Part shown: one piece after another, positions 1 to 11,545 of the stretch
Numbering within the stretch: position 1 is the stretch's first letter
Layout: the number at the start of each line of letters is the position of its first letter
Assembly: GCA_001515955.1 (NCBI GenBank)
Contig: LOES01000191.1
Span: 1-11,545, forward strand
Direction of reading: 5' to 3'
From: Clostridia bacterium BRH_c25
GTDB taxonomy: Bacteria; Bacillota_A; Clostridia; Lutisporales; Lutisporaceae
Length of the DNA: 11,545 bases
Translations under genes and position numbers: made by a program
The notes under the pieces: generated by a model
The model's input: only the letters and a program-made list of their open reading frames with translations
Told to the model about the DNA's origin: nothing
Database searches by the model: none

Positions 1-603
1 CGACGGCTTGGACCGCTTCGAAAATGAAGCCAAAGCCATGAGCTTTCCAGCGTCAGAAAATCTTGAGAATTCGGCAACGCTTTTGTCAAAGGTTGGATCT
101 GCTAGACCGTAGAGAAGGGCATAACGATGTCCAGGTTCGGGCATGACATCGGCAAGCTTAATCAAATTTAACGCAGCATCGATTTTGTAAAAAGAACCAA
201 TTACCCCTTCCCAAAGCAATGCATAGCAAGGTGTGCCTTTGGGTAAATTCGACATGCCAAATGCACAGAGAAGATGTGAACGTTCGTGAGAAGATGAGAA
301 GTATCTAAGAGTCTTCCCTAAAAGACGTTGTTGGCCAATGATTATGTCACTGTAATTGACACCATGATATCCAGCATTAAGACGTTGTTCAGACTGATTC
401 GTATCACCCGTCCACCAGCCACCTCTACAAATCACATCAGGAACTTCTTTGAGTTCGCCGAGAATGCTAAACATATCTGGAATGGACAGTGGTGAGTGAC
501 GATAACGAGAGTGTTTTTCGGCTTCAATGGAAGTAATTAAATGTGCATCCTCAATATAAGCGAATGCTCCATCATGGCCCGGATTGAATGACAATATTTT
601 CAT
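1..603 (-). CDS. NodU/CmcH-family carbamoyltransferase, N-terminal part (runs off left edge)
   Basis: Partial gene: the first 201 codons are inside the window and the frame is open to base 1. The family transfers a carbamoyl group from carbamoyl phosphate to a hydroxyl of a sugar or antibiotic (NodU, CmcH, NovN, TobZ). Visible family marks are the start MKILSFNPGHDGAFAYIED (HDG at 10-12), an EAEKHSRYRHS stretch (27-37) matching the usual EERFSR region, a histidine pair in SSHERSHLL (H106, H110), WEGVIGSF (131-138) in place of the usual DGxGE strand, and GKLMALAS (186-193) like GKxMGLA. The ATG at 603 follows GAGG with about 8 bases spacing. The gene is 29 bases downstream of the three-domain protein and is probably its operon mate. 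The target is unknown; an exported or surface glycan is inferred from the two glycosyltransferase genes upstream. WEG instead of DGxGE suggests a divergent subfamily. Confidence 0.8.
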   Translation of the reverse strand, partial: MKILSFNPGHDGAFAYIEDAHLITSIEAEKHSRYRHSPLSIPDMFSILGELKEVPDVICRGGWWTGDTNQSEQRLNAGYHGVNYSDIIIGQQRLLGKTLRYFSSSHERSHLLCAFGMSNLPKGTPCYALLWEGVIGSFYKIDAALNLIKLADVMPEPGHRYALLYGLADPTFDKSVAEFSRFSDAGKLMALASFSKRSKPS

Positions 604-632
604 TATTCTGCCTCGCTTGAATTAATATTTCT

Positions 633-2840
633 CTACCTAAGTTGTAATTGTTGTTGTTCACCAGGTCTGGAAGAAACAACAACGGAATTTGCCTCCAAAG
701 AGATGCCACCTACTATTGTCATTGCAGGAAGCCGTCCGTCATTAATTCGCCCAGCAAGTTGAATCGAACGAGTTAGCCAACTGTTGATATGGAATGTCAT
801 TGGAAGATTCGGAATTGGTGTCGGATCCCAGATCCCACGTCTATGTACAAGCTTATCGTCAACTAACCATAGGATCTCGCATGGACTCCATTCAATTGTG
901 AAGCGATGGCATTCTTTAGATGCGTCAAATCCAAGTTCTATATAGGTTGGCGCACCTCTATAACCGTAATCAAAATTTGCTCCTTCGTCACCTGGGTTAT
1001 AGAAAACATTGACTAAAAGGCGATTTGATCGATTACCCGCAATCTCGATATCTATTTCTTGTCCCGGTGAATTGCGCTGTAAGAATATTCCAGTGACTAC
1101 ACCCGGCACATTTGAGGCTTGAATGGTTGCTTCGAATTTTCCGAACAAATATTGATCAAGACTGCACAGGGATGCAGCGGAATAGTCTCGAACGCCAAGT
1201 GATTCCTTTTTAACTGAAAATACTGCCCCGATTCCTGGACGGAACTCAATGTTAGACGGGCGAAATAACGCTAAATTATCTGTGAAAGTATCACTCCTCA
1301 ATAGCCAGCGGCGGGTGTCAAGATGTTCTAAACGGTCGGAGATCTTAACTAACATTTCATTTTCACTCTGCTCATCTTTTTGTTGGACAACATTAATACC
1401 TTTCCACCAACTCCTAGATTCAACTAGCCATGGTGAATTATCTTGTCTGGGTATTTTGAATTTATTGACATGATCTAGCTTAGGAATGTCAGCAAGAATT
1501 GGTCTTTGACGGAGGTCCTTCAGTACCGGGTAAGAGCATGCAGGCGGAGCACATCTAAGATGCTGGCAAACGACATGCCATTTATTTAGTTCATTCAAGT
1601 GAAGTACAACGATATCGGCACCATTAAGATCCTCCTCAAGACTATGGACTACGTGATCTACAGTAGTATCGTTTGTAGCGGTAATAATAAACTTGGCCTT
1701 GGGGTAACGACTTCGGAGTATCTTGACCTTTGCCTTCAAAGATCCAATGTTTACGTACGCGTCAAAAACCCGATCTTTTTTTCCTGCAAGAAGCCGTTCC
1801 ATCTCAGGAGCGGGTAAATTATTAAAATCACTGCAGCATCTGTATCCTAGCATGGACAAAGCCATCGCAAGCGATGTTTGGCCGGAACCTTCCGGACCAA
1901 ATGCAAACACTGGATGCTCAATTGGGCGAATATTGAATAAGGATGCTCCTTCGCTATTAATGGCACCGATTTTAGTGAGTGCAGGAAGGATAGAATATGA
2001 ATTTGAAGATGTTATGTCACGTCGTTGGCTTATAAGAGAGTTTTTTGTCGCAAATACATCTAAAACTTCGAAATGATGATTTATCCAGAGGTCGATAGGA
2101 CCACGACAAGGAAGCAGGCGAAGGAGCTTTTCTGCACCTTTTCGCGATAGAACATATCCGGACATATGCCAGAGTCCACGCACTGGTCGGAATAAATTAT
2201 TTGATAGGAAACTTTTTGGAGCACCGTGTTTCACTTCAAGATACGACACATAAAGAACGTCGAATCCGCCTTTCACATTATTTTCTGCTACAATTTCTGT
2301 CCATGCCCGATCCATTTGTTTGGCAAAACTGGAATGAAACCATGTATCGTCTTCTAGGATAAGTACGTTCTCATTATTACCTGCTGCAACCTTCTTCCAA
2401 ACATTGATATGTGACTGGGCGACTGCAATCTCCGCTCGACTCATTCGAATTGGGGTATTTAACTCGAGACGGGTTGGGATAACTAAGGGTTGGGGTTCTA
2501 CAAAAAGTTGATCTCCAAGCGTATAAAACGGATCAATTTCGGCATCCTTCTCTCGCTCATGAGAGAATTGTTTGGCATCGACAGCACTATAGCGCTCTGT
2601 GAGTTTTAGAATTTCAGCTCCCGATGAGTCCAAAATGTACTTAAGCTCTTGCTTCATTTTAGACCAGCGGGCCTGTTCACGATCAAGGTTGATGACATAG
2701 ATTTTGTCAATTGCGGGGAATTTACTCGAACTTTGAACAGAAAATGTTTTACACATTCGATTGGGTAGCAACCGACGAAGAGTCAACCAGAATCGGAAAA
2801 TATTTCTGACTATTGCTATTGATGGGCGCGTTAGGTTCAT
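633..2840 (-). CDS. Three-domain protein: GT25 glycosyltransferase + sulfotransferase-like P-loop domain + GH16 glycosidase fold
   Basis: 735 residues with three enzyme-like blocks. Residues about 44-275 match GT25 (LPS-type) transferases: KIYVINLDREQARW near the start, SRAEIAVAQSHINVWKK (134-150), and the acidic motif LILEDD (160-165). Residues about 308-440 look like a sulfotransferase: P-loop GPEGSGQTS (315-323), RYPKAKFIITATND (378-391) where family members usually have FILTvRdp, and WHVVCQHLRCAPPACSYP (421-438) like the WxxLCxFL...PxxPFP motif. The arginine usually seen after that strand appears replaced. Residues about 510-712 are GH16-like with the catalytic EIDIE motif (E595, D597, E599), WSP and NLPMTFHINSW. 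I see no signal peptide, so a hydrolase fold apparently sits in the cytoplasm beside a transferase and may act in transglycosylation or glycan binding. The start overlaps the upstream GT32 stop (ATGA) and follows GGAGGAGCA, which fixes the ATG. Domain calls are good; the joint function is unknown. Confidence 0.82.
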   Translation of the reverse strand: MNLTRPSIAIVRNIFRFWLTLRRLLPNRMCKTFSVQSSSKFPAIDKIYVINLDREQARWSKMKQELKYILDSSGAEILKLTERYSAVDAKQFSHEREKDAEIDPFYTLGDQLFVEPQPLVIPTRLELNTPIRMSRAEIAVAQSHINVWKKVAAGNNENVLILEDDTWFHSSFAKQMDRAWTEIVAENNVKGGFDVLYVSYLEVKHGAPKSFLSNNLFRPVRGLWHMSGYVLSRKGAEKLLRLLPCRGPIDLWINHHFEVLDVFATKNSLISQRRDITSSNSYSILPALTKIGAINSEGASLFNIRPIEHPVFAFGPEGSGQTSLAMALSMLGYRCCSDFNNLPAPEMERLLAGKKDRVFDAYVNIGSLKAKVKILRSRYPKAKFIITATNDTTVDHVVHSLEEDLNGADIVVLHLNELNKWHVVCQHLRCAPPACSYPVLKDLRQRPILADIPKLDHVNKFKIPRQDNSPWLVESRSWWKGINVVQQKDEQSENEMLVKISDRLEHLDTRRWLLRSDTFTDNLALFRPSNIEFRPGIGAVFSVKKESLGVRDYSAASLCSLDQYLFGKFEATIQASNVPGVVTGIFLQRNSPGQEIDIEIAGNRSNRLLVNVFYNPGDEGANFDYGYRGAPTYIELGFDASKECHRFTIEWSPCEILWLVDDKLVHRRGIWDPTPIPNLPMTFHINSWLTRSIQLAGRINDGRLPAMTIVGGISLEANSVVVSSRPGEQQQLQLR

Positions 2841-3721
2841 TGCTCCTCCTCCGTATCCCGTGACGCTCGATAGGTTTGCTGATTTGACAGTCTCCAGTTT
2901 CTCTTATCATTCCGATAACTGAGTGGCCATTTACTCGTAGAAATTTTCTCCCAATCGTGCACAACCACTATCGTTTCCTCAGGGCAACTTCCCTCGCTGA
3001 TTACCTCAAATATAGACCTTGTGAGATTACCTGGGCCTGTGGTTGCTTGGACTTCAGGTAATTCGCCGTTTAATTCCTGTTCAAGGGCTTCCGTCGCGTT
3101 CCGTAGTACACGCTCTATTATAGGGTGATTGGGACCTGCTATCATAGGCGTGGTATTGAAGTAATAAATCCAGTTTAGGTTGACTGCCCCTATATTGACA
3201 AAAACTGAAGGTGGAACCATCTGAGCAGTTACAATGTCGTAGCAGAACGGTTGAAGTTTCAACCTTCCATCAATGAAGAGGTTATCTATTCTCTCGCCGT
3301 GATAGACGTCGTCTGCGTCAATATAAAAGCCACCCATTATATAAATGTAGCTGTAACGGAAATAATCTGACTTCATAGAAGGATGATAGCACTTGTCAAA
3401 AGCTTTTTCATATCTTGAACCCAAATGAACTCGTATAAATTCCCTCGTTGAGTTTTCGTCAAAAACCTGAAGTTCGAATCCTGACTGTTCGAGTATTTTC
3501 CATGATGCCATGCACTCCTTAACATCCAGGGGTAATCGATCAAGGTCATCCCAGAATTGCACAATGCATTTAGGCGGTGCCACTATGTGCGTGGCGGACG
3601 CTTGAACTGGTTTATTGTGTTGGGATTGTACCAATTCTCGGACGAAATTAGACCGATCACGTTCGTTTTTTTTCAGGGGATCTGTATCATTGGATTCGCG
3701 AATATTCATGCGGTTATTCAC
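2837..3721 (-). CDS. GT32-type DXD glycosyltransferase (Gly_transf_sug family)
   Basis: 294 residues, first gene of the glycan operon. KCIVQFWDDLDRLP (51-64) opens the domain; SDYFRYSYIYIMGGFYIDAD (118-137) carries the GGxYxDxD nucleotide-sugar and metal motif (D135, D137); TGPGNLT (228-234) is the C-terminal motif common in GT32/OCH1-like and capsular sugar transferases. It should transfer a hexose or related sugar from a nucleotide sugar at the cytoplasmic face of the membrane. The start is taken as GTG at 3719-3721, because AAGGAGG lies 10 bases upstream; the first ATG (3709) would be 22 bases away. The final TGA overlaps the next gene's ATG, so translation is probably coupled. The first about 48 residues are polar and have no clear domain. 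The exact sugar cannot be read from sequence. Confidence 0.82.
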   Translation of the reverse strand: MNNRMNIRESNDTDPLKKNERDRSNFVRELVQSQHNKPVQASATHIVAPPKCIVQFWDDLDRLPLDVKECMASWKILEQSGFELQVFDENSTREFIRVHLGSRYEKAFDKCYHPSMKSDYFRYSYIYIMGGFYIDADDVYHGERIDNLFIDGRLKLQPFCYDIVTAQMVPPSVFVNIGAVNLNWIYYFNTTPMIAGPNHPIIERVLRNATEALEQELNGELPEVQATTGPGNLTRSIFEVISEGSCPEETIVVVHDWEKISTSKWPLSYRNDKRNWRLSNQQTYRASRDTEEEQ

Positions 3722-3778
3722 TTTTTAAGAGCCTCCTTTGAAATTTTTATTCGTGTCATAGTTTAATATTGGGTCGTC

Positions 3779-3919
3779 TTACCAATGGGCATAACATTTG
3801 GCTACACTTATCTCTTCACTCCAAAGGGTATCATTTTCTTGAAAAGCTAATATCAAACGTTCCAACTTCTTTGATTTTACAGACTCCTTGTTATCCATAC
3901 AAAGTATTTCAAACTTCAT
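3779..3919 (-). CDS. Small hypothetical protein, 46 residues
   Basis: I do not recognise this ORF. It begins MKFEILCMDNKESVKSKK and ends YAHW. It is charged and has no membrane segment. The ATG at 3917-3919 is preceded by GGAGG with 8 bases spacing, and a perfect TATAAT lies at 3941-3946 just upstream, which is why it is listed. It ends 58 bases before the GTG start of the GT32 gene in the same direction, so it could be the first gene of that transcript, or the truncated front of an older gene cut when the glycan cluster arrived. The matching position of the second HicB-associated repeat has only an 18-codon ORF with a similar beginning (MKIKLRP, ATG at 6550). Confidence 0.4.
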   Translation of the reverse strand: MKFEILCMDNKESVKSKKLERLILAFQENDTLWSEEISVAKCYAHW

Positions 3920-3940
3920 GATATTTGCCTCCAGCTTCCC

Positions 3941-3946
3941 ATTATA
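3941..3946 (-). promoter_or_regulatory. Candidate -10 box for the 46-residue ORF and glycan operon
   Basis: On the minus strand this reads TATAAT, 22 bases before the ATG at 3919. No good -35 is seen at 16-18 bases. The 17 bases just upstream (3947-3963, minus strand GGATGTAGGGTATGTCT) are identical in the second repeat copy (6569-6585), so they may be a conserved operator or just repeat identity. The 57 bases directly before the GT32 start (3722-3778) contain no convincing promoter, so this is the best candidate for the operon. Confidence 0.35.
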
Positions 3947-4262
3947 GACATACCCTACATCCAAACGCTATCATTCAATACCTTTTTCTTTCTATCTATT
4001 ACATTCCTGTATTCTGTAACTTCTACTTTCTAAAGGCAGCTACTTATCCAAAATAACAGGACAGCTGAGAATGAAACCAATTAGATACATTTTCACATTG
4101 CTTGTTTCATCTTATCCTTCATCTATTTTCTTTTCTCTACCCTCCATGTATATTATTCGATATATATTTCCATATCCCTCCAAATAATCCAAAAATATTG
4201 GCTCTTTTCAATCACAATACAAACAAATAACCGCCGTTCTTTTTTCTTAGACCGGCGGCTTA
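3947..4262. repeat. hicB-upstream repeat, copy 1 (partner at 6569-6882)
   Basis: A 316-bp non-coding, AT-rich segment collinear with 6569-6882, both in the same orientation. The ends are well conserved: AGACATACCCTACATCC at the left, and from about 4127 to 4258 long identical runs such as ATTATTCGATATATATTTCC and AAAAATATTGGCTCTTTTC. The middle is much more diverged but alignable without large gaps. In copy 2 the repeat sits in front of a hicB gene; here the tail of a hicB (4420-4475) lies 158 bases further on. I see no gene inside. Confidence 0.8.
4231..4258. terminator. GC-rich hairpin at the end of repeat copy 1
   Basis: CCGCCG (4231-4236) pairs with CGGCGG (4253-4258) around a 16-base loop containing six T in a row. 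Read on the minus strand the stem is followed by TTATTTGTTTG, a weak U-rich tail, so it could end the minus-strand fragment at 4293-4412. The second repeat copy keeps the shape of the region but has lost the perfect stem. Confidence 0.35.
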
Positions 4263-4292
4263 CATATAACATGATGCGTACTTTTCTTTTAT

Positions 4293-4412
4293 CTATTTGT
4301 TTGCTCTGTGCAAGGAATCACTTGCTTGTTCAAATATCTCATCCACGCTCATATCCTTATATACTTCATCTTGAATTTTTAGGTAATCTTCTCCGGAACC
4401 TTCTTCAAAGTT
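4293..4412 (-). pseudogene. C-terminal fragment of an unknown acidic protein
   Basis: The minus-strand frame ending at 4293 reads about 38 residues of protein-like sequence, including LKIQDEVYKDMSVDEIFEQA, before it runs into sequence that is the reverse of a hicB tail (from about 4418). The open frame continues to 4658, but the part beyond 4418 is the antisense of other features and should not be read as protein. I take it as the last part of a gene whose front was lost at the junction. The family is not recognised. It lies exactly where the body of hicB would be expected in this repeat copy. Confidence 0.35.
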
Positions 4413-4419
4413 CCGTATA

Positions 4420-4475
4420 TACCTCAGAAAGCCTTGAAGGATATGCTGAGCATTGGAGAATACAAACACTCTTGA
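4420..4475 (+). pseudogene. hicB: hicB antitoxin remnant: last 16 codons only
   Basis: Reads QKALKDMLSIGEYKHS then TGA. The intact-looking C-terminus at 7385-7434 reads QKALKDILGIGEYKHS; over these 51 bases I count two differences. Homology starts abruptly near 4420, and the preceding about 150 bases are unrelated to hicB. It is followed by a half REP sequence (4487-4506), in the same order as at the other hicB (tail, then REPIN). Confidence 0.75.
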
Positions 4476-4486
4476 AAATAACTTTG

Positions 4487-4506
4487 GAGTCTGGCACCTA
4501 TCCATC
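4487..4506 (+). repeat. REP half-element A
   Basis: TTGGAGTCTGGCACCTATCC matches the right arms of the REPIN-like elements at 7449-7521 (AGCCTGGCACCTATCC) and 9552-9629 (GGAGCCTGACATCTATCC). The left arm is missing, so no hairpin forms. Confidence 0.6.
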
Positions 4507-4525
4507 TTGAATTCCCTTAATAATA

Positions 4526-4554
4526 TTGTTAAATTATGGTTTTGAGTGTATAAT
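4526..4554 (+). promoter_or_regulatory. Sigma-A-type promoter for the GNAT gene
   Basis: TTGTTA (4526-4531), 17-base spacer, TATAAT (4549-4554). The start codon of the acetyltransferase is at 4715, leaving a leader of roughly 150 bases, unusually long for such a gene and containing a mini-ORF and complementary segments. A small hairpin AAAGC/GCTTT (4562-4576) lies at about the expected transcript start. Confidence 0.7.
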
Positions 4555-4602
4555 GGTGAATAAAGCGAAAAGCTTTGTTTATTTAAGTGAGGTGAGCGAC
4601 AG

Positions 4603-4629
4603 TATGAATAGTATCCGTCCTCCATGTTA
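4603..4629 (+). CDS. Candidate leader peptide MNSIRPPC
   Basis: An eight-codon ORF (ATG at 4603, TAA at 4627-4629) inside the GNAT leader, preceded by GAGGTGAG with a usable spacing of about 8-10 bases. The codons CGT CCT CCA encode Arg-Pro-Pro, and their DNA can pair with both the GAGGAC at 4647-4652 and the ribosome site at 4701-4707. Drug-inducible genes such as ermC and cat use short leader ORFs in this position. That parallel is an inference; nothing shows that the peptide is made. Confidence 0.4.
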
Positions 4630-4649
4630 ATCTTTATGCAGGATTCGAG

Positions 4650-4709
4650 GACCTCCATATGAAGTGGTGCCCAACCACATGAAAACAGTAAATTATTATA
4701 ATGGAGGTC
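4650..4709 (+). promoter_or_regulatory. Possible ribosome-site sequestering stem (translational attenuator)
   Basis: GACCTCCAT (4650-4658) is the exact reverse complement of ATGGAGGTC (4701-4709), which contains the GGAGG ribosome site of the acetyltransferase. The 42-base loop between them holds its own hairpin, GTGGT (4664-4668) with ACCAC (4674-4678). A competing pairing is possible between GTCCTC in the leader ORF (4617-4622) and GAGGAC (4647-4652), which overlaps the anti-ribosome-site strand by three bases. The arrangement would keep the gene off until a ribosome or factor changes the fold. Confidence 0.45.
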
Positions 4710-4714
4710 TGAAA

Positions 4715-5203
4715 ATGAAAAGCAAAGAACTGATTCTTCGTCCTCTCAATGACACAGATATTGATTTGTTAACCTCATGGTTAAGCAAAGATTATATCTT
4801 AAAGTGGTATCACGATGCAGACGAATGGCTTGTTGAAATTAACGAACGGCATGGTGCTTATTCATGGATACACCATTTTATAGTCATGGATTGCAAAACG
4901 CCCATTGGTTTTTGTCAATATTACGATTGCTATGATGCAAAGGATATGGAAGATTGGTATGATGTAACCACACAGGGCGATACTTTTTCTATTGATTATT
5001 TGATTGGCAATGAAGCCTATCTGGGTAAAGGATATGGAAAAGCGCTTGTCAAGCTTTTATCCGATACCATTCAAACTGTGGAAAATGCCAAGCGGATTAT
5101 TGTTCAGCCCGAGACGGAAAACCTTGCATCCAACCATGTACTAGTGGCTAATGGCTATGTTTATGATGAGCAGCTAAGATATTACTGCAAATCTCTGAAT
5201 TAG
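4715..5203 (+). CDS. GNAT acetyltransferase, AAC(6')-like
   Basis: 162 residues. The start MKSKELILRP is chosen because GGAGG lies 7 bases upstream; the frame is open further up to 4664 but without a ribosome site. The GNAT acetyl-CoA motif is AYLGKGYGKAL (101-111), preceded by SIDYLIG (92-98), which matches the GIDQxL strand of AAC(6') enzymes where the aspartate is catalytically important; QPETENLASNHVLVANGY (131-148) is the late GNAT motif. N-terminal RPLNDTDIDLLTSWL and KTPIGFCQYY fit the same family. It would transfer acetyl from acetyl-CoA to an amine. Aminoglycoside resistance is possible but many relatives have no proven drug substrate. The gene is monocistronic, with its own promoter and a long structured leader, and is followed by a large hairpin. 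Confidence 0.82.
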   Translation: MKSKELILRPLNDTDIDLLTSWLSKDYILKWYHDADEWLVEINERHGAYSWIHHFIVMDCKTPIGFCQYYDCYDAKDMEDWYDVTTQGDTFSIDYLIGNEAYLGKGYGKALVKLLSDTIQTVENAKRIIVQPETENLASNHVLVANGYVYDEQLRYYCKSLN

Positions 5204-5235
5204 TTTCGTCAACACTAGAACAGAGATAGCAGAGG

Positions 5236-5278
5236 CAGAGTGGGTCATATACTTCCTTGAAGTGTATGACCCACTCTG
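5236..5278 (+). terminator. Long 20-bp hairpin after the GNAT gene
   Basis: The arms 5236-5255 (CAGAGTGGGTCATATACTTC) and 5259-5278 pair over 20 bases with one T/G wobble and a three-base loop. It begins 32 bases after the GNAT stop and could end that transcript or protect its 3' end, but there is no clear T run after it. Two more small hairpins follow directly (5281-5302 and 5303-5313). Confidence 0.5.
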
Positions 5279-5280
5279 AT

Positions 5281-5313
5281 ACTTTCCGCTTCGCGGCAAA
5301 GTGTCCCATGGAC
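5281..5313. other. Two small adjacent hairpins
   Basis: ACTTTCCGC (5281-5289) pairs with GCGGCAAAGT (5293-5302) with a TTC loop and one bulged C; GTCC (5303-5306) pairs with GGAC (5310-5313) around CAT. An alternative pairing is TCCCA (5304-5308) with TGGGA (5322-5326). With the 20-bp hairpin just before, this makes about 80 bases of nearly continuous secondary structure between the GNAT gene and the 100-bp repeat. Confidence 0.4.
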
Positions 5314-5329
5314 TCTCCGGGTGGGAACG

Positions 5330-5430
5330 CCCTGCATGTTTTATGTTTGTGTTACCCCTCTGCATTATGCCATCCCCCCCTTACTTGTCACACTATTCTC
5401 AGAGGGATTATGAAAATGTTTACAAATTAG
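5330..5430 (+). repeat. 100-bp repeat, copy 1 (partner at 10186-10285)
   Basis: Collinear with the segment between the second acetyltransferase and rubrerythrin, from CCCTGCATGTTTTATGTTTG to ATGTTTACAAATTAG, with about a dozen differences. Copy 2 supplies the TTTACA -35 box of rubrerythrin. In copy 1 the same TTTACA is present (5419-5424) but the following sequence is a different one, leading into a REP core, so the promoter has no -10 here. Confidence 0.85.
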
Positions 5431-5440
5431 TAAGTTTCAT

Positions 5441-5453
5441 GGTGTCAGGCACC
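5441..5453. repeat. REP core element B
   Basis: GGTGTCAGGCACC, a near-perfect palindrome (GGTG...CACC). The core resembles the arms of the REPIN-like elements at 7449-7521 and 9552-9629. It sits a few bases after the end of repeat copy 5330-5430 and just before the 3' end of the phosphotransferase gene. Confidence 0.55.
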
Positions 5454-5465
5454 GAACAATGCTTA

Positions 5466-6431
5466 TTATGAACATAATATTGAATCTATCTCAAACCAGT
5501 GTTCCGTCAGCCAAAGCATTTCATCTTTGAAACGCTTTGGGGTTTTATCACATTCTCCAAAAAATTCCGGCTGTATCCACCACGGTATTTCAATGCACCA
5601 CGAAAGCCGCAAAGCATCCGCTATATTAGGTAACGTCAACGCTGAATGCTGTGAATAGCCTTCAAGGAAAGCGCATACCTTTTCGACGTTCATTATATTG
5701 CCTTCCAACGCAAAAGACAGTATCGCTCTTCCTATATCATGCCAAATATAGCTGTAGCAATTACGGTCGAAATCAACGACAGCGGATATGCAATCCACAT
5801 CGAACAGGATATTGCCGGAGTGAAAATCCTCATGAGTGAATCCTTTGGGAAACTTATCAAAAAATTCGGTGCTAAGCTGCTTCAAAATCGGCTCCAGCGC
5901 AAGCAAAGCTTTCCGGTATTCAACATGAGCGTCTGGCGAGCATTTCGTCATACGGGAGTTAAAGTTTTCCCATGATAAATCCATCGTATAACCGCCAAAA
6001 ACGGGTAGGTTCTTGACTGAAGGCTCCAGTAATTGTGAAAACGCTCTGTGCATTACAGCGCAGGTGCTTCCGAGACTGCGCATTTGCGTTATTGTGATTG
6101 TGTCGGGGTTTTCTGTCTTTCCCGAGCAAAAATCCATGACCATATAGGCTGTTTTGTCATCCAGCCAACGAATTACACGGTCTCCGCACTGCCAGAGAAA
6201 CGGACAGGGAACGCTGTTTTTTTCAAGGATAATCTGCCGCTGCAGACTGGACTCGATTAACTCAATACTTTCTCTGCGAAACCGCTTAGAGCTGTATTGT
6301 TTGACCAATAGTTCGCCTTTTTCAGTTGAAACTTTCCATTTCTGATTCAGCAATCCACCTGTTACCGGAGTAATTTGATTAAAAGTTATCCCATAGCTTT
6401 CTTTCAAATCAGCTATAATTTTATCTTCCAT
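5466..6431 (-). CDS. APH/choline-kinase-family phosphotransferase
   Basis: 321 residues. The catalytic loop is HEDFHSGNILF (H200, D202, N207), the Brenner motif of aminoglycoside phosphotransferases, followed by the metal-binding VVDFDR (D220, D222). LLVKQY (K44) fits the ATP-binding lysine, after a glycine-rich VTGGLLNQKWKV loop (23-34). The length and layout are those of the APH family, which also contains spore-coat CotS-like, homoserine and choline kinases. The substrate cannot be assigned; aminoglycosides or small hydroxylated metabolites are both possible. ATG at 6429-6431 follows AGAGG with about 8 bases spacing. It converges with the GNAT gene on the left, so the two are not an operon. 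Confidence 0.82.
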   Translation of the reverse strand: MEDKIIADLKESYGITFNQITPVTGGLLNQKWKVSTEKGELLVKQYSSKRFRRESIELIESSLQRQIILEKNSVPCPFLWQCGDRVIRWLDDKTAYMVMDFCSGKTENPDTITITQMRSLGSTCAVMHRAFSQLLEPSVKNLPVFGGYTMDLSWENFNSRMTKCSPDAHVEYRKALLALEPILKQLSTEFFDKFPKGFTHEDFHSGNILFDVDCISAVVDFDRNCYSYIWHDIGRAILSFALEGNIMNVEKVCAFLEGYSQHSALTLPNIADALRLSWCIEIPWWIQPEFFGECDKTPKRFKDEMLWLTEHWFEIDSILCS

Positions 6432-6450
6432 GCAATAACCTCTTGAACAA

Positions 6451-6479
6451 AATATAAATTTTCTAACTTCACTGTTTAA
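6451..6479 (-). promoter_or_regulatory. Candidate promoter of the phosphotransferase gene
   Basis: On the minus strand TTAAAC (6474-6479), 17-base spacer, TATATT (6451-6456), 20 bases before the ATG. The -35 is only a moderate match. Confidence 0.4.
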
Positions 6480-6568
6480 AAATAATCATTGCTTCACAAC
6501 ATAAAACGAATATGCATTTCAGGTATTAATGGTCGTAACTTTATCTTCATGCGTTTTCACACAACCTC

Positions 6569-6882
6569 AGACATACCCTACATCCGAATGCTGTTATTCT
6601 ATTGCCTTGCCATTATACCTGTTACAATCTTGTCTCATGCAATTTCTTCTTCCACAAAACAGTTATTTGTCCGAAAAAATCAAACAGATGTAATTGAAAT
6701 ATGTTATATGCATTCTCACATTGCTTACTTTCATCTATTTGTCATTTCTCTATCCTTCGAATATATTATTCGATATATATTTCCATATCCCTCCAAATAA
6801 TTCAAAAATATTGGCTCTTTTCTATCACAATACAGACAAATAAACACCGTTCTTTTTTCTTTCCTCAGACCGGCAGTTTATC
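6569..6882. repeat. hicB-upstream repeat, copy 2 (partner at 3947-4262)
   Basis: A 314-bp segment of low GC, without a gene, collinear with 3947-4262. This copy keeps a palindrome TCGAATATATTATTCGA (6757-6773) whose left arm has decayed in copy 1. Together with the short spacer up to 7018 it explains most of the gene-free stretch 6432-7018. No hicA toxin reading frame was found in it on either strand. Confidence 0.8.
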
Positions 6883-6898
6883 TATATATAATAATTTA

Positions 6899-6927
6899 TT
6901 TACACGCATCATAATACGCATTACAAT
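6899..6927 (+). promoter_or_regulatory. Promoter of the hicB locus
   Basis: TTTACA (6899-6904), 17-base spacer, TACAAT (6922-6927), about 90 bases before the hicB ATG. It lies just to the right of the conserved repeat and has no counterpart in copy 1. Confidence 0.55.
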
Positions 6928-6947
6928 ATACTTGCATAGAAAAGCAG

Positions 6948-6975
6948 GCAGGAATAAAATTCAAATAATTCCTGC
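6948..6975 (+). promoter_or_regulatory. Dyad in the hicB leader
   Basis: GCAGGAAT (6948-6955) and ATTCCTGC (6968-6975) are perfect inverted copies 12 bases apart, between promoter and start codon. HicB-type antitoxins with a C-terminal DNA-binding domain repress their own operon, so an operator is a reasonable guess; an RNA hairpin is the alternative. Confidence 0.35.
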
Positions 6976-7018
6976 TCCTCTTATAAACAAAAAATATAAA
7001 AATAAGGAGATATTTCTC

Positions 7019-7434
7019 ATGAAAAAAGATAGTTATATTTATCCTGCAATATTGAACTATGCAGAAGATGGAATTTCAATCATATTCCCGGATTTGCCCG
7101 GTTGTTTGCCTTGTGCAGCTAATATCGATGAAGCCGTTCACAATGCAAAGGAAGCCATGGCACTCCACTTGTATGGATGGAAGAAGATAATGATACAATA
7201 CCCGAACCTACATCTATAAATAAGATTGGATTGGAGCCTAATCAAGCAATTGTTCTGGTTGAAGTACACATGCCTATTTATAGAGAGGCAATAGAAAACG
7301 AATATGTCAGAAAAAATGTAACATTACCCCATTGGCTCGAGAAACTTGCTGAAAATAAGGGCATCAACTTTTCCCAGGTACTCCAGAAAGCCTTGAAGGA
7401 TATACTGGGCATTGGAGAATACAAACACTCTTGA
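7019..7434 (+). pseudogene. hicB: HicB-family antitoxin, broken by a one-base frameshift
   Basis: The first part (MKKDSYIYPAILNYAEDG, then FPDLPGCLPCAANIDEA and EAMALHLYG) is the HicB partial RNase-H fold. After LYG the frame goes wrong, and the rest of the protein continues in another frame from MEEDNDTIPEP to QKALKDILGIGEYKHS, including VTLPHWLEKLAENKGINFSQVLQ, the ribbon-helix-helix-like DNA-binding part. Restoring one base near 7176-7177 gives a normal HicB of about 138 residues. The ATG at 7019 follows AAGGAGA with 8 bases spacing. HicB neutralises the HicA mRNA-cleaving toxin, but no hicA is visible, so this is an orphan. The lesion is either a real mutation or a sequencing error. Confidence 0.82.
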
Positions 7435-7448
7435 AGTAAATTAGGTAT

Positions 7449-7521
7449 ATAGGTACCAGGTGCACAGGTTATTATATTTGAATAGCCTAATAACCTAATA
7501 ACCTTATAGCCTGGCACCTAT
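7449..7521. repeat. REPIN-like hairpin element C
   Basis: Two 26-base arms (7449-7474 and 7496-7521) pair as ATAGGTxCCAGG with CCTGGxACCTAT and AGGTTATTA with TAATAACCT, interrupted by a symmetrical five-by-five unpaired bubble (TGCAC on the left). The loop is 21 bases. It lies between the convergent ends of hicB and the ABC permease and could act as a two-way terminator. Element D has the same architecture, including the TGCAC bubble. Confidence 0.75.
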
Positions 7522-7535
7522 CCCGCTCGTTTATT

Positions 7536-8345
7536 TTAGGAACGCAAGTCCTTTCTTTTATAAATCTCGTGTGCAACTATATAGCAAATAACAATGGCCA
7601 ATATACCAACCAGCCATTCTTCCTTTCTAATCCCTTCTGTCATTAATTTTTGTGTTTTAATCCAGTCCATGGGTGATAAATAAGATAAAAAACTTAAATC
7701 ATCTATTACTAGACCCATAATTCCTAAAATAAATGTACTAAATACAATGGCAATTACAATCCCAGAAGAACCTTTACTTCTTTTTAGCCAAGCGGATAGA
7801 AGCACCCCTATTGCCATAAAAACGAGGCCAATATATAGGATGGAACCATATAAAATGCTGGTTTCCTTAATACTTTCAACAAAATTATAATCGTTGAAGG
7901 AGAGATAGCCAATGACTGTTATAATACAAAGAACAATAAGTATAGAAAGAAAGGAAAAGATGTTTGCAAGTGTTTTCTGTAATAATATTTCACCACGTGA
8001 AATTGACTTGCTATATAAGAATTCAATGGTTCCATCTGTTTCCTCTTTAATAAGAGAATTCACTGCTAATTGTGTGACAAGTACCATGATCGCTAATGTT
8101 ATATATTGAAGGACATAGCCAAAGAAGTTTGTTATAACGGTAAAATCCGTGAGTTCTGCTAACCCAAGTGCTTCCAGTAATGATGGGTCCAAACCCTCCA
8201 TTTTCGCTCCTGCAAGTTCCTTCATAGACTCCGTCTGCATAGCAGGAAAAAATGAAAGGAGCATAAATGTAATACTACTTAGAGTAATTGCCCATTTCAA
8301 GGTGCTTTTCCATGTATTCTTTATCTCCAATCGAAAAACATTCAT
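7536..8345 (-). CDS. ABC-2 type transporter permease
   Basis: 269 residues with about six hydrophobic segments (roughly 17-36, 73-97, 128-150, 163-186, 195-214, 245-261). SLIKEETDGTIEFLYSKSIS (97-116) is the conserved cytoplasmic loop of ABC-2 exporters (EExxGTxExL...pisR), which couples the permease to its ATPase. It acts in the cytoplasmic membrane; the cargo (drug, peptide or lipid) is unknown. ATG at 8343-8345 follows GGTGG and lies two bases after the ATPase stop, so it is the second gene of an ATPase-permease operon. The reading frame is intact although its ATPase is not. Confidence 0.85.
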   Translation of the reverse strand: MNVFRLEIKNTWKSTLKWAITLSSITFMLLSFFPAMQTESMKELAGAKMEGLDPSLLEALGLAELTDFTVITNFFGYVLQYITLAIMVLVTQLAVNSLIKEETDGTIEFLYSKSISRGEILLQKTLANIFSFLSILIVLCIITVIGYLSFNDYNFVESIKETSILYGSILYIGLVFMAIGVLLSAWLKRSKGSSGIVIAIVFSTFILGIMGLVIDDLSFLSYLSPMDWIKTQKLMTEGIRKEEWLVGILAIVICYIVAHEIYKRKDLRS

Positions 8346-8347
8346 TG

Positions 8348-9134
8348 CTATTCCACCTTTCCATAAAGATCCATAAACTGTTCTTCCAGACTTTCATTTT
8401 CAATGGTAAAATCCTCCATATCGGCTTCGTGTAATAATTTAAGCAACGAAGCACTATCACCTTGATAACGTAAGACACGTTTATTTTCCTTTTGCTCCAA
8501 TAGCTGCATGTTAGGATGAGTAATATCCTTGCCTCCCCAAATGGTTACTATTTTCTGAGGTTGACGTATTTCCTTTAAATCTGTTACTGCAAGGATTTTA
8601 CCTTGCTTAATAAACGCAACCCTATGGCAATATTCCTGTACTTCTCCAAGATTATGGCTTGATAAAAGGACGGCAACTCCATTTGCAGACTGACTTTTTA
8701 GTTCAGTAAATAATCGTTTCTGCATCATGGGATCTAGTCCATTGGTTGGCTCATCTAATATCAGTACTTTTGGTTTTACTGCCAGTGCACAGACGTTCTG
8801 CTTCCTCATCATGGGAACCCCTGTAAAATCCATTGCTCACCCTAATTAATTCCCGTATTGTCATATCCCCGTAAAATCTAACATCACTGGGAATATATCC
8901 TGTGAATTTTTTAATCTCTTCACTTTCTTTTACGACATCCTTACCGCATATTGTAGCATTGCCGCCACTAGGAAAAATGAAATTTAGCAGCATTCTTATC
9001 GTTGTTGATTTTCCAGCTCCATTTGGTCCGACGAATCCGAATATTTCACCTTCTTGTACCGAAAATGATACATTTTCAACACCTAGATGCTTCCCATAAT
9101 TTTTTTTCAAATTGCTTATTTGAATAGCATCCAT
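8348..9134 (-). pseudogene. ABC transporter ATPase, internal deletion with frameshift
   Basis: The front half (from 9134) begins MDAIQISNLKKNYGKHLG and carries Walker A GPNGAGKST (36-44), then GYIPSDVRFYGDMTIREL and SHDEEAERLC. The frame then leaves the family and stops soon after. The rear half, in another frame, restarts at ALAVKPKVLILDEPTNGLDP (Walker B and D-loop) with the H-loop LLSSHN, and runs to the end. Related ATPases have about 26 residues between these two points, including the LSxGN signature motif, which is completely absent. The junction falls at GTCTGTGC on the minus strand (8787-8794), consistent with a deletion between short repeats. Without the signature motif and in frame, no working ATPase is expected. 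ATG follows AAGGTGG. Confidence 0.85.
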
Positions 9135-9151
9135 TATCTAGCCACCTTTCA

Positions 9152-9265
9152 TTATAACCCTTTATTTTTTCCTTTAAATTTATTTAGTACATCATTTGAA
9201 AGTGTAAATAATGGACCTGCAATAATTCCTGATATCAAAAGCGTTTTTCTTCTAACATGAAACAT
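9152..9265 (-). CDS. Small membrane ORF, 37 residues; possible DUF998 remnant
   Basis: Starting MFHVRRKTLLISGIIAGPLF and ending FKGKNKGL. GGAGG lies 8 bases before this ATG, although an in-frame ATG at 9289 would add eight residues. One hydrophobic stretch (about 9-21) resembles, from memory, the first membrane helix of DUF998 proteins (LLISGIIAGPLF); those continue for about 200 residues, so this may be an internal-deletion remnant with its two ends joined. It is the first reading frame of the transcript carrying the damaged ABC operon, 17 bases before the ATPase start. A genuine short membrane peptide is the alternative. Confidence 0.4.
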   Translation of the reverse strand: MFHVRRKTLLISGIIAGPLFTLSNDVLNKFKGKNKGL

Positions 9266-9311
9266 TGTCATGTCCTCCTTCAAATTCATGATCTAGGAAA
9301 TTTAAAGGAAA

Positions 9312-9320
9312 CACCTCCCC
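9312..9320 (-). promoter_or_regulatory. Ribosome site without a gene
   Basis: Minus-strand GGGGAGGTG, a strong Shine-Dalgarno sequence just after the promoter at 9346-9374, but no start codon follows at normal spacing that opens a useful frame. It may mark the start of a lost first gene, for instance a regulator of the ABC operon. Confidence 0.35.
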
Positions 9321-9345
9321 TATACTTCTACATCACCTTATACAT

Positions 9346-9374
9346 AGTATAAATTTAGTATATCAATTTCTCAA
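9346..9374 (-). promoter_or_regulatory. Promoter of the ABC transporter operon
   Basis: Minus strand TTGAGA (9369-9374), 17-base spacer, TATACT (9346-9351). Immediately downstream the plus strand reads TATACATAGTATA (9339-9351), an almost perfect palindrome over the -10 that could be a repressor operator. Confidence 0.6.
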
Positions 9375-9445
9375 CGAATTATAGCTCTGGTACATTATTC
9401 AGTGGTTAAGTTGCATTGCAAGAAATTAAGTCTATAAACATAAAT

Positions 9446-9468
9446 CCCCCAAACTCTTAGTCTGAGGG
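9446..9468 (-). terminator. Hairpin in the gap left of the second acetyltransferase
   Basis: Minus strand CCCTCAGACT and AGTTTGGGGG pair over ten positions (two of them G-T) with an AAG loop, followed by ATTTATGTTTATAG. Its position fits the end of the acetyltransferase transcript or insulation before the ABC promoter. The rest of the gene-free stretch 9266-9637 holds only the ABC promoter and REPIN element D. Confidence 0.4.
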
Positions 9469-9551
9469 AAAATAAAGCACACTTCAATTTTCATCTAAAT
9501 ACTCTGAAACCTTGCTTTCAGTTTTAACATTCCAGACTCTTACTTCTATTC

Positions 9552-9629
9552 AGGTGTCAGGTGCACAGGTTATTTGGTTATTGAAATCAACAAATATAAT
9601 AACTTAATAACCTCGGAGCCTGACATCTA
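9552..9629. repeat. REPIN-like hairpin element D
   Basis: The left arm AGGTGTCAGG-TGCAC-AGGTTATT (9552-9574) pairs with the right arm 9607-9629 (AATAACCT-CGGAG-CCTGACATCT), again with a five-by-five bubble whose left side is TGCAC, as in element C. Both right arms continue ATCCC. The element ends 8 bases before the acetyltransferase stop codon, so it probably forms the 3' end of that transcript. Confidence 0.75.
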
Positions 9630-9637
9630 TCCCCCTA

Positions 9638-10177
9638 CTATGACCGAAATTTAGCATACAACATCAAATCATAATATGTATTATCTATGAAATAATAGTC
9701 CTTCAATCGCCCTTCCAACTCAAAACCGTTCTTTTCCAGCACTCGGGCCGAACCGATATTCGCATCCACCACACGTGCGTGGAGCTTGTGAAGGTTAAGG
9801 GAGGCAAATGCAAAATCATTCATTATAGCAGTAGTTTCTGTGCCATAACCTTTGCCCCAATGCCTGCTGTGAAAAACATAACCGATTTCTGCGTGCTTCG
9901 CTTCGTGGTCAAAATTGAAAATCATGGCTGTCCCTATTATTTCTTGAGTTGACTTAAGAATAATCGATGCATATAAATGTGTACCCACTGATTCACGTCT
10001 CAACATTTCTTCAATATAATTATGGGTTTCTTCCAAAGCTTTCATTAATGGCCAGCCAATAAAGCGTTTAACATTCTTATCTGAAGCATAGCTGTGTATT
10101 TCTTGGGCATCATTGGTACTCAAGGGTTTGAAGCAAATGTTTTCGCCTTCCAAACCATGAAATAAATTTGTATTCAT
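9638..10177 (-). CDS. RimJ/RimL-like GNAT acetyltransferase
   Basis: 179 residues. ICFKPLSTNDAQEIHSYASD (14-33) is the typical start of the RimJ/RimL group; AEIGYVFHSRHWGKGYGTET (96-115) contains the acetyl-CoA loop (HWGKGYGTE); ANIGSARVLEKNGFELEGRL (139-158) is the late motif with the conserved NxxSxRVLEKxGF. Family members acetylate the N-terminus of ribosomal proteins or small amine substrates; the specific target is not readable. ATG at 10175-10177 follows GGGGGA. It is divergent from rubrerythrin and shares with it the 100-bp repeat as promoter region (a TATAAT-like GGTATAATG lies in it on the minus strand). Confidence 0.85.
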   Translation of the reverse strand: MNTNLFHGLEGENICFKPLSTNDAQEIHSYASDKNVKRFIGWPLMKALEETHNYIEEMLRRESVGTHLYASIILKSTQEIIGTAMIFNFDHEAKHAEIGYVFHSRHWGKGYGTETTAIMNDFAFASLNLHKLHARVVDANIGSARVLEKNGFELEGRLKDYYFIDNTYYDLMLYAKFRS

Positions 10178-10185
10178 ATTAGTCC

Positions 10186-10285
10186 CCCTGCATGTTTTAT
10201 GTTTGTCTTACCCCTCTACATTATACCATCCCCCCTTATTTGTTTCACTATTTCCAGGAGGGTTATGAAAATGTTTACAAATTAG
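10186..10285 (+). repeat. 100-bp repeat, copy 2, the rubrerythrin/acetyltransferase divergent promoter region
   Basis: Partner of 5330-5430. It fills most of the space between two divergent genes, carrying the acetyltransferase ribosome site edge on one side and the rubrerythrin -35 box on the other. Copy 1 is not next to either gene, so copy 2 is probably the original. Confidence 0.85.
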
Positions 10286-10301
10286 AGAATTGACCTATAA
10301 T
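10274..10301 (+). promoter_or_regulatory. Rubrerythrin promoter
   Basis: TTTACA (10274-10279), 16-base spacer, TATAAT (10296-10301), about 58 bases before the start codon. The bases from 10296 on (TATAATATAATAATAAG) are AT-repetitive; a clean PerR box cannot be made out. Confidence 0.65.
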
Positions 10302-10358
10302 ATAATAATAAGAAGAATTACACAATAACTAATGAATAATAAAAATGGAGGAATATGA

Positions 10359-10853
10359 ATGGAAGAACAAAAAACACTTAAGAACCTCATGGAAGCCTTT
10401 GCAGGAGAATCTCAGGCTAACAGAAAATATCTGGCCTACTCAAAGAAAGCGGCGGCAGAAGGAAAAGTCAACGCAGCCAAGCTGTTCAAGGCGGCTTCCG
10501 ATGCTGAAACCTTGCATGCTCTCAAGCATTTTGACGTTGCAGGCAAAACCGGAACAACTGTTGACAATCTAAAGGACGCAGTTATCGGTGAAACCCATGA
10601 ATATCAAGACATGTATCCTGATTTTGTGAAAACTGCCGAAGAAGAAGGCAACAAGGCGGCAGTCATGACATTTACCTTTGCTATGAAGGCTGAGGAGGTC
10701 CATGCCAGGTTATATAAGGAAGCCTTGGAAAATCTCGATCAATCAGAAGAAATATTTTACTACCTCTGTCCTGTATGTGGGAATATCGAAAAATCCGTTC
10801 CCGATAAATGCAGCATCTGTGGCGTGCCCGGGGCTAAGTTCATTAAATATTAA
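10359..10853 (+). CDS. rbr: Rubrerythrin
   Basis: 164 residues. The ferritin-like di-iron domain shows AFAGES (E17), SDAETLHA (E50, H53), GETHEYQDMYP (E78, E81) and KAEEVHARLY (E112, H115), the ligand pattern of rubrerythrins. The C-terminal rubredoxin-like domain has CPVC (137-140) and CSIC (151-154), which bind one iron. It reduces hydrogen peroxide to water in the cytoplasm using electrons from rubredoxin or NADH-linked partners, protecting anaerobes from oxidative stress. ATG at 10359 follows GGAGG with 7 bases spacing. It has its own promoter and a strong terminator, so it is monocistronic. Length and residues are complete; nothing appears damaged. Confidence 0.95.
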   Translation: MEEQKTLKNLMEAFAGESQANRKYLAYSKKAAAEGKVNAAKLFKAASDAETLHALKHFDVAGKTGTTVDNLKDAVIGETHEYQDMYPDFVKTAEEEGNKAAVMTFTFAMKAEEVHARLYKEALENLDQSEEIFYYLCPVCGNIEKSVPDKCSICGVPGAKFIKY

Positions 10854-10881
10854 CCCAATGCAGCATTAGCTTCTATAAGTG

Positions 10882-10924
10882 AACCACCAAGAAGTATGTT
10901 ATATCTTGCTTCTTGGTGGTTTTT
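10882..10924 (+). terminator. Rubrerythrin terminator
   Basis: AACCACCAAGAAG (10882-10894) pairs perfectly with CTTCTTGGTGGTT (10909-10921) around a 14-base loop, followed by a short T run. It lies 29 bases after the stop codon and is a clear rho-independent terminator. Confidence 0.92.
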
Positions 10925-11021
10925 GAATAAGCGGGAAAGTGCGGTGGCATCATAATACCTTATATTTGGGTTCTCAAAAAACTACATAGACCTTATTTGT
11001 TATATGGCACCCATCATCCCA

Positions 11022-11228
11022 TTACTCATTCAGATAGATACTGACACGGTTCTGTATAAGTTTTCCGACATCTTTGGCTGACCGCTGATCACTCAGATAT
11101 GCTTTCAGCTCACCTTCGATGATGGATTTGAGCTGAAGATTATAATCATTAAGCTGCCCAAGGGATGAGATTGTTGATTTTATTTGCTCAAACTGTTTTG
11201 CTGTAAAAAGTAAAATAACCGGATATCT
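11022..11228 (-). pseudogene. Remnant of an extracellular solute-binding protein, C-terminal end
   Basis: The open minus-strand frame, bounded by a stop at 11229-11231, has no usable start and encodes 68 residues beginning YPVILLFTAKQFEQIKS and ending SAKDVGKLIQNRVSIYLNE. The final part has the typical ending of sugar ABC transporter solute-binding lipoproteins of Firmicutes (…AEDVAKLIQNRxxIYVNE), and LNDYNLQLKSIIEGELKAYL fits the helix before it. The rest of the protein (about 400 residues) is missing, so this is debris. No transporter partners are in the window. The family call rests on recalled C-terminal motifs. Confidence 0.55.
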
Positions 11229-11242
11229 TTAGTGTCTGCCGC

Positions 11243-11545
11243 CTACTTCTCTTTTTCTTCTCTAAAGAGTTCATCGATCTGCTGTTTGGTTTCAACAGGC
11301 AATGTATCCTTAAGATAATTAAGATCTACCGCTTGTCTTTCCCGATAGACCTGAATGACTCTTTCACTGGCACTTTCAATTTCCTCCTTCAGCTCTCTGG
11401 CAGATAACAAGGAACATCCTGCTCCCCTTATAATAATCTGCTGTAAACCGTCTGAGGTTGCAACCGCTATATTATATTTTTTCTGATTGTTACGGGCAAA
11501 TTTTTCAATATACTGGTCCGCCGTTTGTGCCTCCCTGGTATATAC
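11243..11545 (-). CDS. YacP/Rae1-type NYN-domain ribonuclease, C-terminal part (runs off right edge)
   Basis: The last 100 codons of a gene whose start is beyond the window. VYTREAQTADQYIEKFARNN followed by YNIAVATSDGLQQIIIRGAG and LSARELKEEI is the conserved C-terminal half of YacP proteins (VYT...ETADxxIE, VATSDxxEQ, MSARELxxE), with the acidic residues of the PIN-like NYN fold. In Bacillus subtilis this family (Rae1) enters the ribosome A site and cuts mRNA. The charged tail (EEKEK) ends the protein at TAG. Rough position 60-180 of a normal 170-200 residue protein is inferred. It lies just upstream of the solute-binding remnant in the same direction. Confidence 0.75.
   Translation of the reverse strand, partial: VYTREAQTADQYIEKFARNNQKKYNIAVATSDGLQQIIIRGAGCSLLSARELKEEIESASERVIQVYRERQAVDLNYLKDTLPVETKQQIDELFREEKEK

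What the first reader, a model, noticed from the sequence alone, without database searches (positions are those of the whole stretch)
633..2840. One protein joins a GT25 glycosyltransferase, a sulfotransferase-like domain and a GH16 fold
Sugar transfer, possible sulfation and glycan cleavage or transglycosylation appear on one chain without a signal peptide. The GT25 part keeps LILEDD, the GH16 part keeps the full EIDIE catalytic motif, and the middle domain keeps a P-loop (GPEGSGQTS). A GH16 enzyme in the cytoplasm next to a transferase is unusual, and could trim, transfer or bind the glycan as it is made.
Basis: partly seen in the sequence, partly recalled or inferred. Interest (0 to 1): 0.78.

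Follow-up and report, generated by a model that had tools for sequence, protein, structure and literature searches.

The report
Mobile sugar-enzyme module in defence islands
The odd three-part protein is real and is the core of a small, apparently unnamed gene module that jumps between very distant bacteria, often sits beside genes that protect against viruses, and probably builds or edits a sugar molecule inside the cell.

Summary
The gene is on the minus strand (2840 to 633, 735 aa) and joins a GT25 glycosyltransferase, a shortened sulfotransferase-fold domain and a GH16 domain. It is no chimera: 357 of 360 listed homologues carry both Pfam GT25 and GH16. GT25 EDD and the two GH16 glutamates are invariant in 114 of 114 aligned proteins; the middle P-loop is not conserved, so sulfation is doubtful.

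The gene is the core of a mobile module: GT32-like gene, this gene, usually a NodU-like carbamoyltransferase. GT32 is adjacent in 21 of 21 loci readable on that side (broken in one). Copies occur in at least ten phyla by source labels, on plasmids, in an E. coli conjugative island and in two prophages, one beside the portal gene of a P2-like prophage (a known defence hotspot). In one contig imperfect inverted repeats enclose the module and a tyrosine recombinase; the window shares one of these ends.

Within 5 kb, at least 10 of 18 loci hold known or candidate defence genes, against at most 4 of 19 control regions (one-sided Fisher p 0.03; 0.055 without viral contigs). PADLOC does not know the module.

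Best reading: a mobile cytoplasmic glycan-modification system, plausibly anti-phage. Substrate and defence role are untested.

The parts
633..2840 (-). 735-aa GT25 / sulfotransferase-like / GH16 protein, core gene of the module
2112..2708 (-). GT25 domain (residues 45-243); EDD of LILEDD at 2346-2363 invariant in 114 of 114 aligned proteins
   Evidence: profile match to solved procollagen galactosyltransferase E 6.9e-11
1521..1913 (-). shortened sulfotransferase-fold domain (residues 310-440); P-loop (1872-1898) not conserved
681..1358 (-). GH16 jelly roll (residues 495-720), lichenase-like; EIDIE at 1044-1058: E595 and E599 in 114 of 114, D597 in 113 of 114
2760..2813 (-). basic amphipathic N-terminal helix (residues 10-27), possible peripheral membrane anchor (inference)
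2837..3721 (-). GT32-like glycosyltransferase (Gly_transf_sug, DAD at residues 135-137), 294 aa; overlaps the core gene by 4 nt (ATGA)
1..603 (-). NodU-like O-carbamoyltransferase, N-terminal 201 aa, cut by the window edge; the close copy in L002 is 536 aa
3779..3919 (-). 46-codon leader ORF between the shared left edge and GT32; the same stretch is present in L002 and L007
3932..3949 (-). terminal repeat GTCTATAATGGGAAGCTG at the module's edge; in L002 an imperfect inverted copy (4 nt longer) lies 6.9 kb away, beyond the carbamoyltransferase and a tyrosine recombinase
3951..3952 (.). left edge of the unit: three contigs (window, L002, L007) share sequence up to here and differ beyond
3952..11545 (.). 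host DNA of Bacillota type, unrelated to the module

Best explanation
This is the core enzyme of a mobile two- or three-gene glycan-modification system, most likely selected for protection against phages. Shown: the domain architecture, conserved catalytic residues, linkage to GT32 in every readable locus and often to a NodU-like carbamoyltransferase, purifying selection, transfer between phyla, and frequent location beside defence genes and in mobile elements. Inferred: the GT32 and GT25 enzymes add sugars one after another to an acceptor in the cytoplasm, perhaps at the inner face of the membrane through the basic N-terminal helix; the sulfotransferase-like domain binds substrate or holds the two catalytic domains together; the GH16 domain trims the new glycan or transfers it (transglycosylation) rather than digesting food; the carbamoyltransferase caps a hydroxyl group of the product. 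The product then either changes the cell surface so that phages do not attach, or acts inside the infected cell. I favour the surface route slightly.
For: Architecture kept in 357 of 360 listed homologues. GT32 adjacent in 21 of 21 loci readable on that side, one of them broken (L057 annotated as two pieces); in PLSDB the GT32 query at E <= 1e-20 hits 9 records, the same 9 in which the core gene is covered 80% or more. GT32 and core gene overlap by 4 nt in 6 of 14 loci measured. Cross-phylum tree: the window protein nests with a Chloroflexota one and then Bacteroidota ones at 100/100 support. In L002 inverted terminal repeats enclose the module and a tyrosine recombinase, and the same terminus marks the edge in the window and L007. 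PADLOC within 5 kb, E <= 3e-21, at least 10 of 18 loci: Wadjet, Gabija helicase and PDC-S53, Shedu, Lit, type I restriction-modification, AbiD and PDC-S06, DUF262-type (three loci), type IV restriction; at most 4 of 19 control regions. L028 is a P2-like prophage: scaffold, terminase, portal, DNA methyltransferase, then the module; the region beside the portal is a known defence hotspot (PMC9122126, passages). L009 lies between terminase and integrase genes of another prophage, next to a Lit-like gene. Module GC differs from the surroundings in E. coli (0.35 against 0.46) and Klebsiella (0.36 against 0.49).
Against: No phage assay exists. None of the three proteins matches PADLOC at E <= 1. No PADLOC match was mapped to the other eight loci (L006, L014, L028, L045, L048, L050, L056, L059); L048 and L050 sit among housekeeping genes. 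The control is only roughly matched (stretches of the same genomes and plasmids, none for viral contigs); p is 0.055 without viral contigs and 0.07-0.10 if 5 control regions are counted. Genomic islands collect many kinds of cargo, so co-location is suggestive only. The cytoplasmic substrate of a GH16 enzyme is unknown.
Confidence: 0.5

Rival explanations
1. A mobile surface-glycan modification cassette (LPS, capsule or glycoprotein decoration) selected for general surface variation, not mainly for phage defence.
For: GT25 and GT32 are typical of LPS and capsule synthesis; seroconversion cassettes are known in prophages (recalled). Chromosomal copies L048 and L050 lie among housekeeping genes. 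PHROGs files the matching GT25 and carbamoyltransferase families under moron genes.
Against: No flippase, polymerase or sugar-nucleotide family is among those that two or more of the 117 flank proteins match; L050 alone lies next to glycogen genes. The module occurs in Bacillota and in Gram-negative hosts, whose surface polymers differ (recalled).
Confidence: 0.25
2. Synthesis of a small carbamoylated oligosaccharide (signal or antibiotic-like metabolite), by analogy with NodU and TobZ.
For: The carbamoyltransferase profile matches TobZ, GdmN and novobiocin-type enzymes; its plasmid relatives outside the module include rhizobial proteins at about 49% identity.
Against: The carbamoyltransferase is absent from the fetched stretch of 8 loci (L012, L013, L030, L045, L050, L055-L057), so it is an accessory; no export or lipid-transfer partner was seen to recur.
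Confidence: 0.12
3. A writer-and-eraser pair in one chain: the transferases put a sugar on a cell target as a toxin and GH16 removes it as the antitoxin, released on infection.
For: Opposite activities on one chain and a defence-island setting; a weak GT32 profile match to a solved chain named 'putative insecticidal toxin' (E 0.0013).
Against: GH16 enzymes cut within beta-glucan or galactan chains (recalled), not single protein-linked sugars; no toxicity data.
Confidence: 0.08
4. The window is an assembly join of two organisms at 3951.
For: Right part is Bacillota-like, left part is not typical of it; a diverged host duplication begins at 3946; the window's own assembly is not held.
Against: The same edge, with a terminal repeat, occurs in two other contigs with other flanks, and the gene has whole homologues, so it is real either way.
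Confidence: 0.05

Closest known systems
GT25 family (LPS glycosyltransferases; procollagen galactosyltransferase)
   Same: Pfam match above cut-off, EDD motif invariant, profile match to solved procollagen galactosyltransferase
   Different: fused to sulfotransferase-like and GH16 domains
GH16 lichenases (1,3-1,4-beta-glucanase) and GH16 transglycosylases such as Crh5
   Different: no signal peptide, fused, about 20-24% identity; substrate unknown
PF17784 Sulfotransfer_4 and bacterial sulfotransferases (SgdX2, Cpz8)
   Different: about 120 residues long with an unconserved P-loop; probably not catalytic
NodU / TobZ / GdmN O-carbamoyltransferases
   Same: PF02543 and profile match to solved enzymes; about 49% identity to rhizobial proteins
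   Different: a separate subfamily tied to this module; far below the NodU equivalog cut-off
Cargo of the P2 old/tin defence hotspot (Rousset 2022, PMC9122126)
   Same: one copy sits beside the portal gene of a P2-like prophage
   Different: no sugar enzymes of this kind in the passages seen; defence not tested here
Prophage gtr seroconversion cassettes (recalled)
   Same: mobile glycosyltransferase genes that can block phage attachment
   Different: no gtrA/gtrB-like membrane partner seen; contains GH16 and carbamoyltransferase

Membership tests
GT25 glycosyltransferase | PF01755 above cut-off | tested here: met
   63.3 bits against 24
GT25 glycosyltransferase | acidic metal-binding motif kept | tested here: met
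   EDD 114 of 114
GH16 | PF00722 above cut-off and beta-jelly-roll fold | tested here: met
GH16 | catalytic ExDxE | tested here: met
   E595 and E599 114 of 114, D597 113 of 114
GH16 | hydrolysis or transglycosylation of a beta-glycan | not testable with these tools
   no assay
PAPS sulfotransferase | sulfotransferase fold | tested here: met
PAPS sulfotransferase | PF17784 above cut-off in this protein | tested here: not met
   14.1 bits against 22.8; 37 of 360 listed homologues carry the domain in precomputed Pfam
PAPS sulfotransferase | conserved phosphosulfate-binding P-loop | tested here: not met
   unconserved or missing
NodU/TobZ O-carbamoyltransferase | carbamoyltransferase domains, match to solved enzymes | tested here: met
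NodU equivalog (NF041651) | score above the curated cut-off | tested here: not met
   249.5 against 1000 bits
known anti-phage system | match to a PADLOC model | tested here: not met
   0 families for each of the three proteins at E <= 1
anti-phage system of any kind | defence-gene neighbourhood | tested here: inconclusive
   at least 10 of 18 loci against at most 4 of 19 control regions, p 0.033; 0.055 without viral contigs
anti-phage system of any kind | reduced phage plating | not testable with these tools
   needs the bench

The most novel reading that the evidence does not exclude
A widespread, undescribed class of anti-phage system whose effectors are sugar enzymes: two glycosyltransferases, a cytoplasmic GH16 enzyme and an optional carbamoyltransferase that make or edit a glycan before or on infection, spread by tyrosine-recombinase elements, plasmids and prophages.
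Probability: 0.42. Interest if true: 0.87.

Novelty: new variant of a known kind. Interest (0 to 1): 0.72.

Why it matters
Three searches, each scoring about 8000 candidates, returned 2095, 2377 and 1062 homologues (overlapping; single-domain ones included), with source labels from at least ten phyla, yet the module has no name in the sources searched here, where the core gene is labelled 'family 16 glycosylhydrolase', 'beta-glucanase' or 'GR25 glycosyltransferase'. If it is a defence system, it would be a glycan-chemistry type that PADLOC misses. If it is not, it is still a glycan-modification module exchanged across phyla, with a GH16 enzyme working inside the cell, where no substrate is obvious.

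Tried and rejected
Phage origin of the core gene: tblastn in 50,697 phage records found none, and single-sequence scans of viral contigs for the core and GT32 genes found none; the profile scan found 3 viral contigs with the core gene, so it is rare cargo there. A shared mobility gene: IS21, tyrosine and serine recombinases occur near several copies, but the recombinase of L002 has only 26-30% relatives, in L013, L055 and control L073. Terminal repeats: I first judged that there were none; on re-reading, that call showed an inverted 11-mer, and bear out an imperfect inverted repeat in L002 (14 nt exact; 1 of 500 shuffles as long; 18 of 22 positions with a 4-nt insert). It rests on one contig. 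DNA modification: viral carbamoyltransferases of about 30% identity exist, but no base hydroxylase was seen beside this module; thought less likely. Literature: eight of ten searches used; the listings and abstracts showed no paper on this unit; passages of PMC13092281, PMC12724379 and PMC10449497 did not concern it. Most subscription papers and bioRxiv are not held.

Limits of counts: the 18 loci are those I fetched, not a random sample; two near-copies of an Aliarcobacter plasmid (L055, L057) and two of the E. coli locus (L046, L047) were left out of the neighbourhood test, as were L007 and L008. The tally of the 117 flank proteins shows the first 25 of 321 families; 20 chosen flank proteins were scanned singly. 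L002, L013, L049 and the Gabija helicase of L030 were assigned to their loci by annotation or translation, the rest by single scans. A type II methyltransferase match (6.2e-90) was neither mapped nor counted. Of the eight unmapped loci only one protein of L014, one of L045 and three of L056 were scanned singly (no match). In the control, 22 of the 25 families shown are hits of one group II intron maturase; DrmD, mad3 and PDC-M51A are one protein each, so at most 4 proteins pass 3.3e-21; one control region (L068) holds a single protein. For the four E. coli genomes of 5426, two are records of one strain. Of 398, 395 and 395 genomes searched in three phyla (E <= 1e-40, 1e-40, 1e-60), 1, 8 and 2 matched; 4 of the 8 matched over GH16 alone and both of the 2 are cut by contig ends.

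Full report
1. Observation. The window holds an ORF at 633-2840 on the minus strand, 735 aa, ATG start. Pfam finds GT25 (45-243, E 3.7e-17) and GH16 (545-691, E 8.3e-24) well above cut-off and Sulfotransfer_4 below it (E 0.043).

3. Conservation. In 114 aligned proteins (identity to the window 34-91%) the GT25 EDD, the GPxDxWxN motif, and GH16 E595 and E599 are invariant and D597 is kept in 113; the P-loop is not conserved. dN/dS of window against the Bacteroidota copy L005 is 0.20 for the whole gene, 0.13 for GH16, 0.19 for GT25 and 0.31 for the middle domain. Against the 98% relative L002 the core gene gives 0.40, and GT32 has too few changes to judge (dN 0.006, dS 0.005).

4. The module. 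Upstream and overlapping by 4 nt is a GT32-like gene (2837-3721), downstream by 29 nt a NodU-like carbamoyltransferase cut by the window edge. GT32 is adjacent in 21 of 21 loci readable on that side (broken in L057). The carbamoyltransferase is found in window, L002, L005, L006, L009, L010, L011 (a transposase gene lies within it), L014, L015, L028, L048, L049 and L059, and not in the fetched stretches of L012, L013, L030, L045, L050 and L055-L057; L007 is cut. In L014 and L015 it comes first, in L009 it is divergent, so content is kept while order changes.

5. Mobility. Window 1-3951 is 98.9% identical to L002/L004 (HGW-Firmicutes-8); the core protein is 78% identical to a Sphingobacteriia copy, 65% to another Bacteroidetes copy and 95% over the first 322 residues to a contig labelled Deltaproteobacteria. 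The match to L002 and L007 stops at 3951/3952 and the flanks differ. The edge carries GTCTATAATGGGAAGCTG in all three; in L002 an inverted copy with a 4-nt insert lies 6.9 kb away (10894-10915 and 17755-17772), enclosing module and a tyrosine recombinase. The 14 exact bases were matched by 1 of 500 shuffles. This looks like a recombinase-borne element, seen whole in one contig only. The right part of the window is Bacillota-like DNA (matches of 65-80% in 43 of 378 genomes). A tree of 39 proteins in 14 groups puts the window with Bacillota and Chloroflexota inside Bacteroidota, Citrobacter with Rhizorhabdus, and Aliarcobacter among Gammaproteobacteria; labels still cluster more than shuffled, so transfer is frequent but not random. 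Of six plasmids read, four are typed conjugative; other copies lie in an E. coli conjugative island (4 of 5426 genomes) and in two prophages.

6. Neighbourhood. Proteins within 5 kb of 18 loci (117) and 125 proteins from 19 control stretches of the same genomes and plasmids were scanned with PADLOC. At E <= 3e-21 at least 10 of 18 loci hold a match: L002 type I restriction-modification; L005 NsnA/PD-T4-2-type DUF262 and PDC-S01; L009 Lit; L010 DUF262; L011 PDC-S06 and AbiD; L012 type IV restriction; L013 Shedu; L015 Orf5/HEC-06 DUF262; L030 PDC-S53 and Gabija helicase; L049 Wadjet. The control has at most 4, one of them a group II intron maturase. One-sided Fisher p is 0.033, 0.055 without the three viral contigs. 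In L028 the module follows a P2-type portal gene, and PMC9122126 describes the region between gpA and gpQ as a defence hotspot (passages).

7. Interpretation. The conserved catalytic sites argue that both GT25 and GH16 work. With no signal peptide, GH16 acts in the cytoplasm, so its substrate is most simply the glycan made by its own chain. The basic amphipathic N-terminal helix could bring it to the membrane, where lipid-linked glycans are built. Carbamoylation by the third gene is an optional cap. Exchange between hosts with different envelopes suggests either a substrate common to most bacteria or a product that acts by itself. Defence is the best single account of the surroundings, but co-location is not proof.

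8. Known or new. Each domain belongs to a known family; the sulfotransferase-like part fails the motif test for an active enzyme. The combination with GT32 and carbamoyltransferase, its spread and its setting were not found in the papers searched or in PADLOC.

Noticed in passing
window 3946-4476 and 6569-7435: A diverged duplication in the host DNA (pieces 70-90% identical), the second copy holding a HicB-like ORF; the first copy begins at the module's edge, as if the module had landed in it.
   Followed up: partly
window 5330-5430 and 10186-10285: A second pair of repeats, about 100 bp, 86-94% identical, between genes.
   Followed up: no
window 8348-9134: An ABC transporter ATPase gene appears split over two overlapping frames, a frameshift in the host or in the assembly.
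   Followed up: no
L002 10894-17772: Imperfect inverted repeats enclose the module and a tyrosine recombinase, a candidate whole mobile element.
   Followed up: partly
L008 4358-9851: In a viral contig the NodU-like gene follows three tandem recombinase-like ORFs and a small coiled-coil-like ORF, an arrangement like Tn554-type transposons (judged by eye and recalled).
   Followed up: no
L028 3799-13845: The module lies next to the portal gene of a P2-like prophage, the cos-proximal defence hotspot.
   Followed up: yes
L012 12687-18083: The Klebsiella plasmid copy is bracketed by two short tyrosine recombinases.
   Followed up: no
window 3779-3919: A 46-codon leader ORF before GT32, in a stretch shared by the three closest copies; function unknown.
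   Followed up: partly
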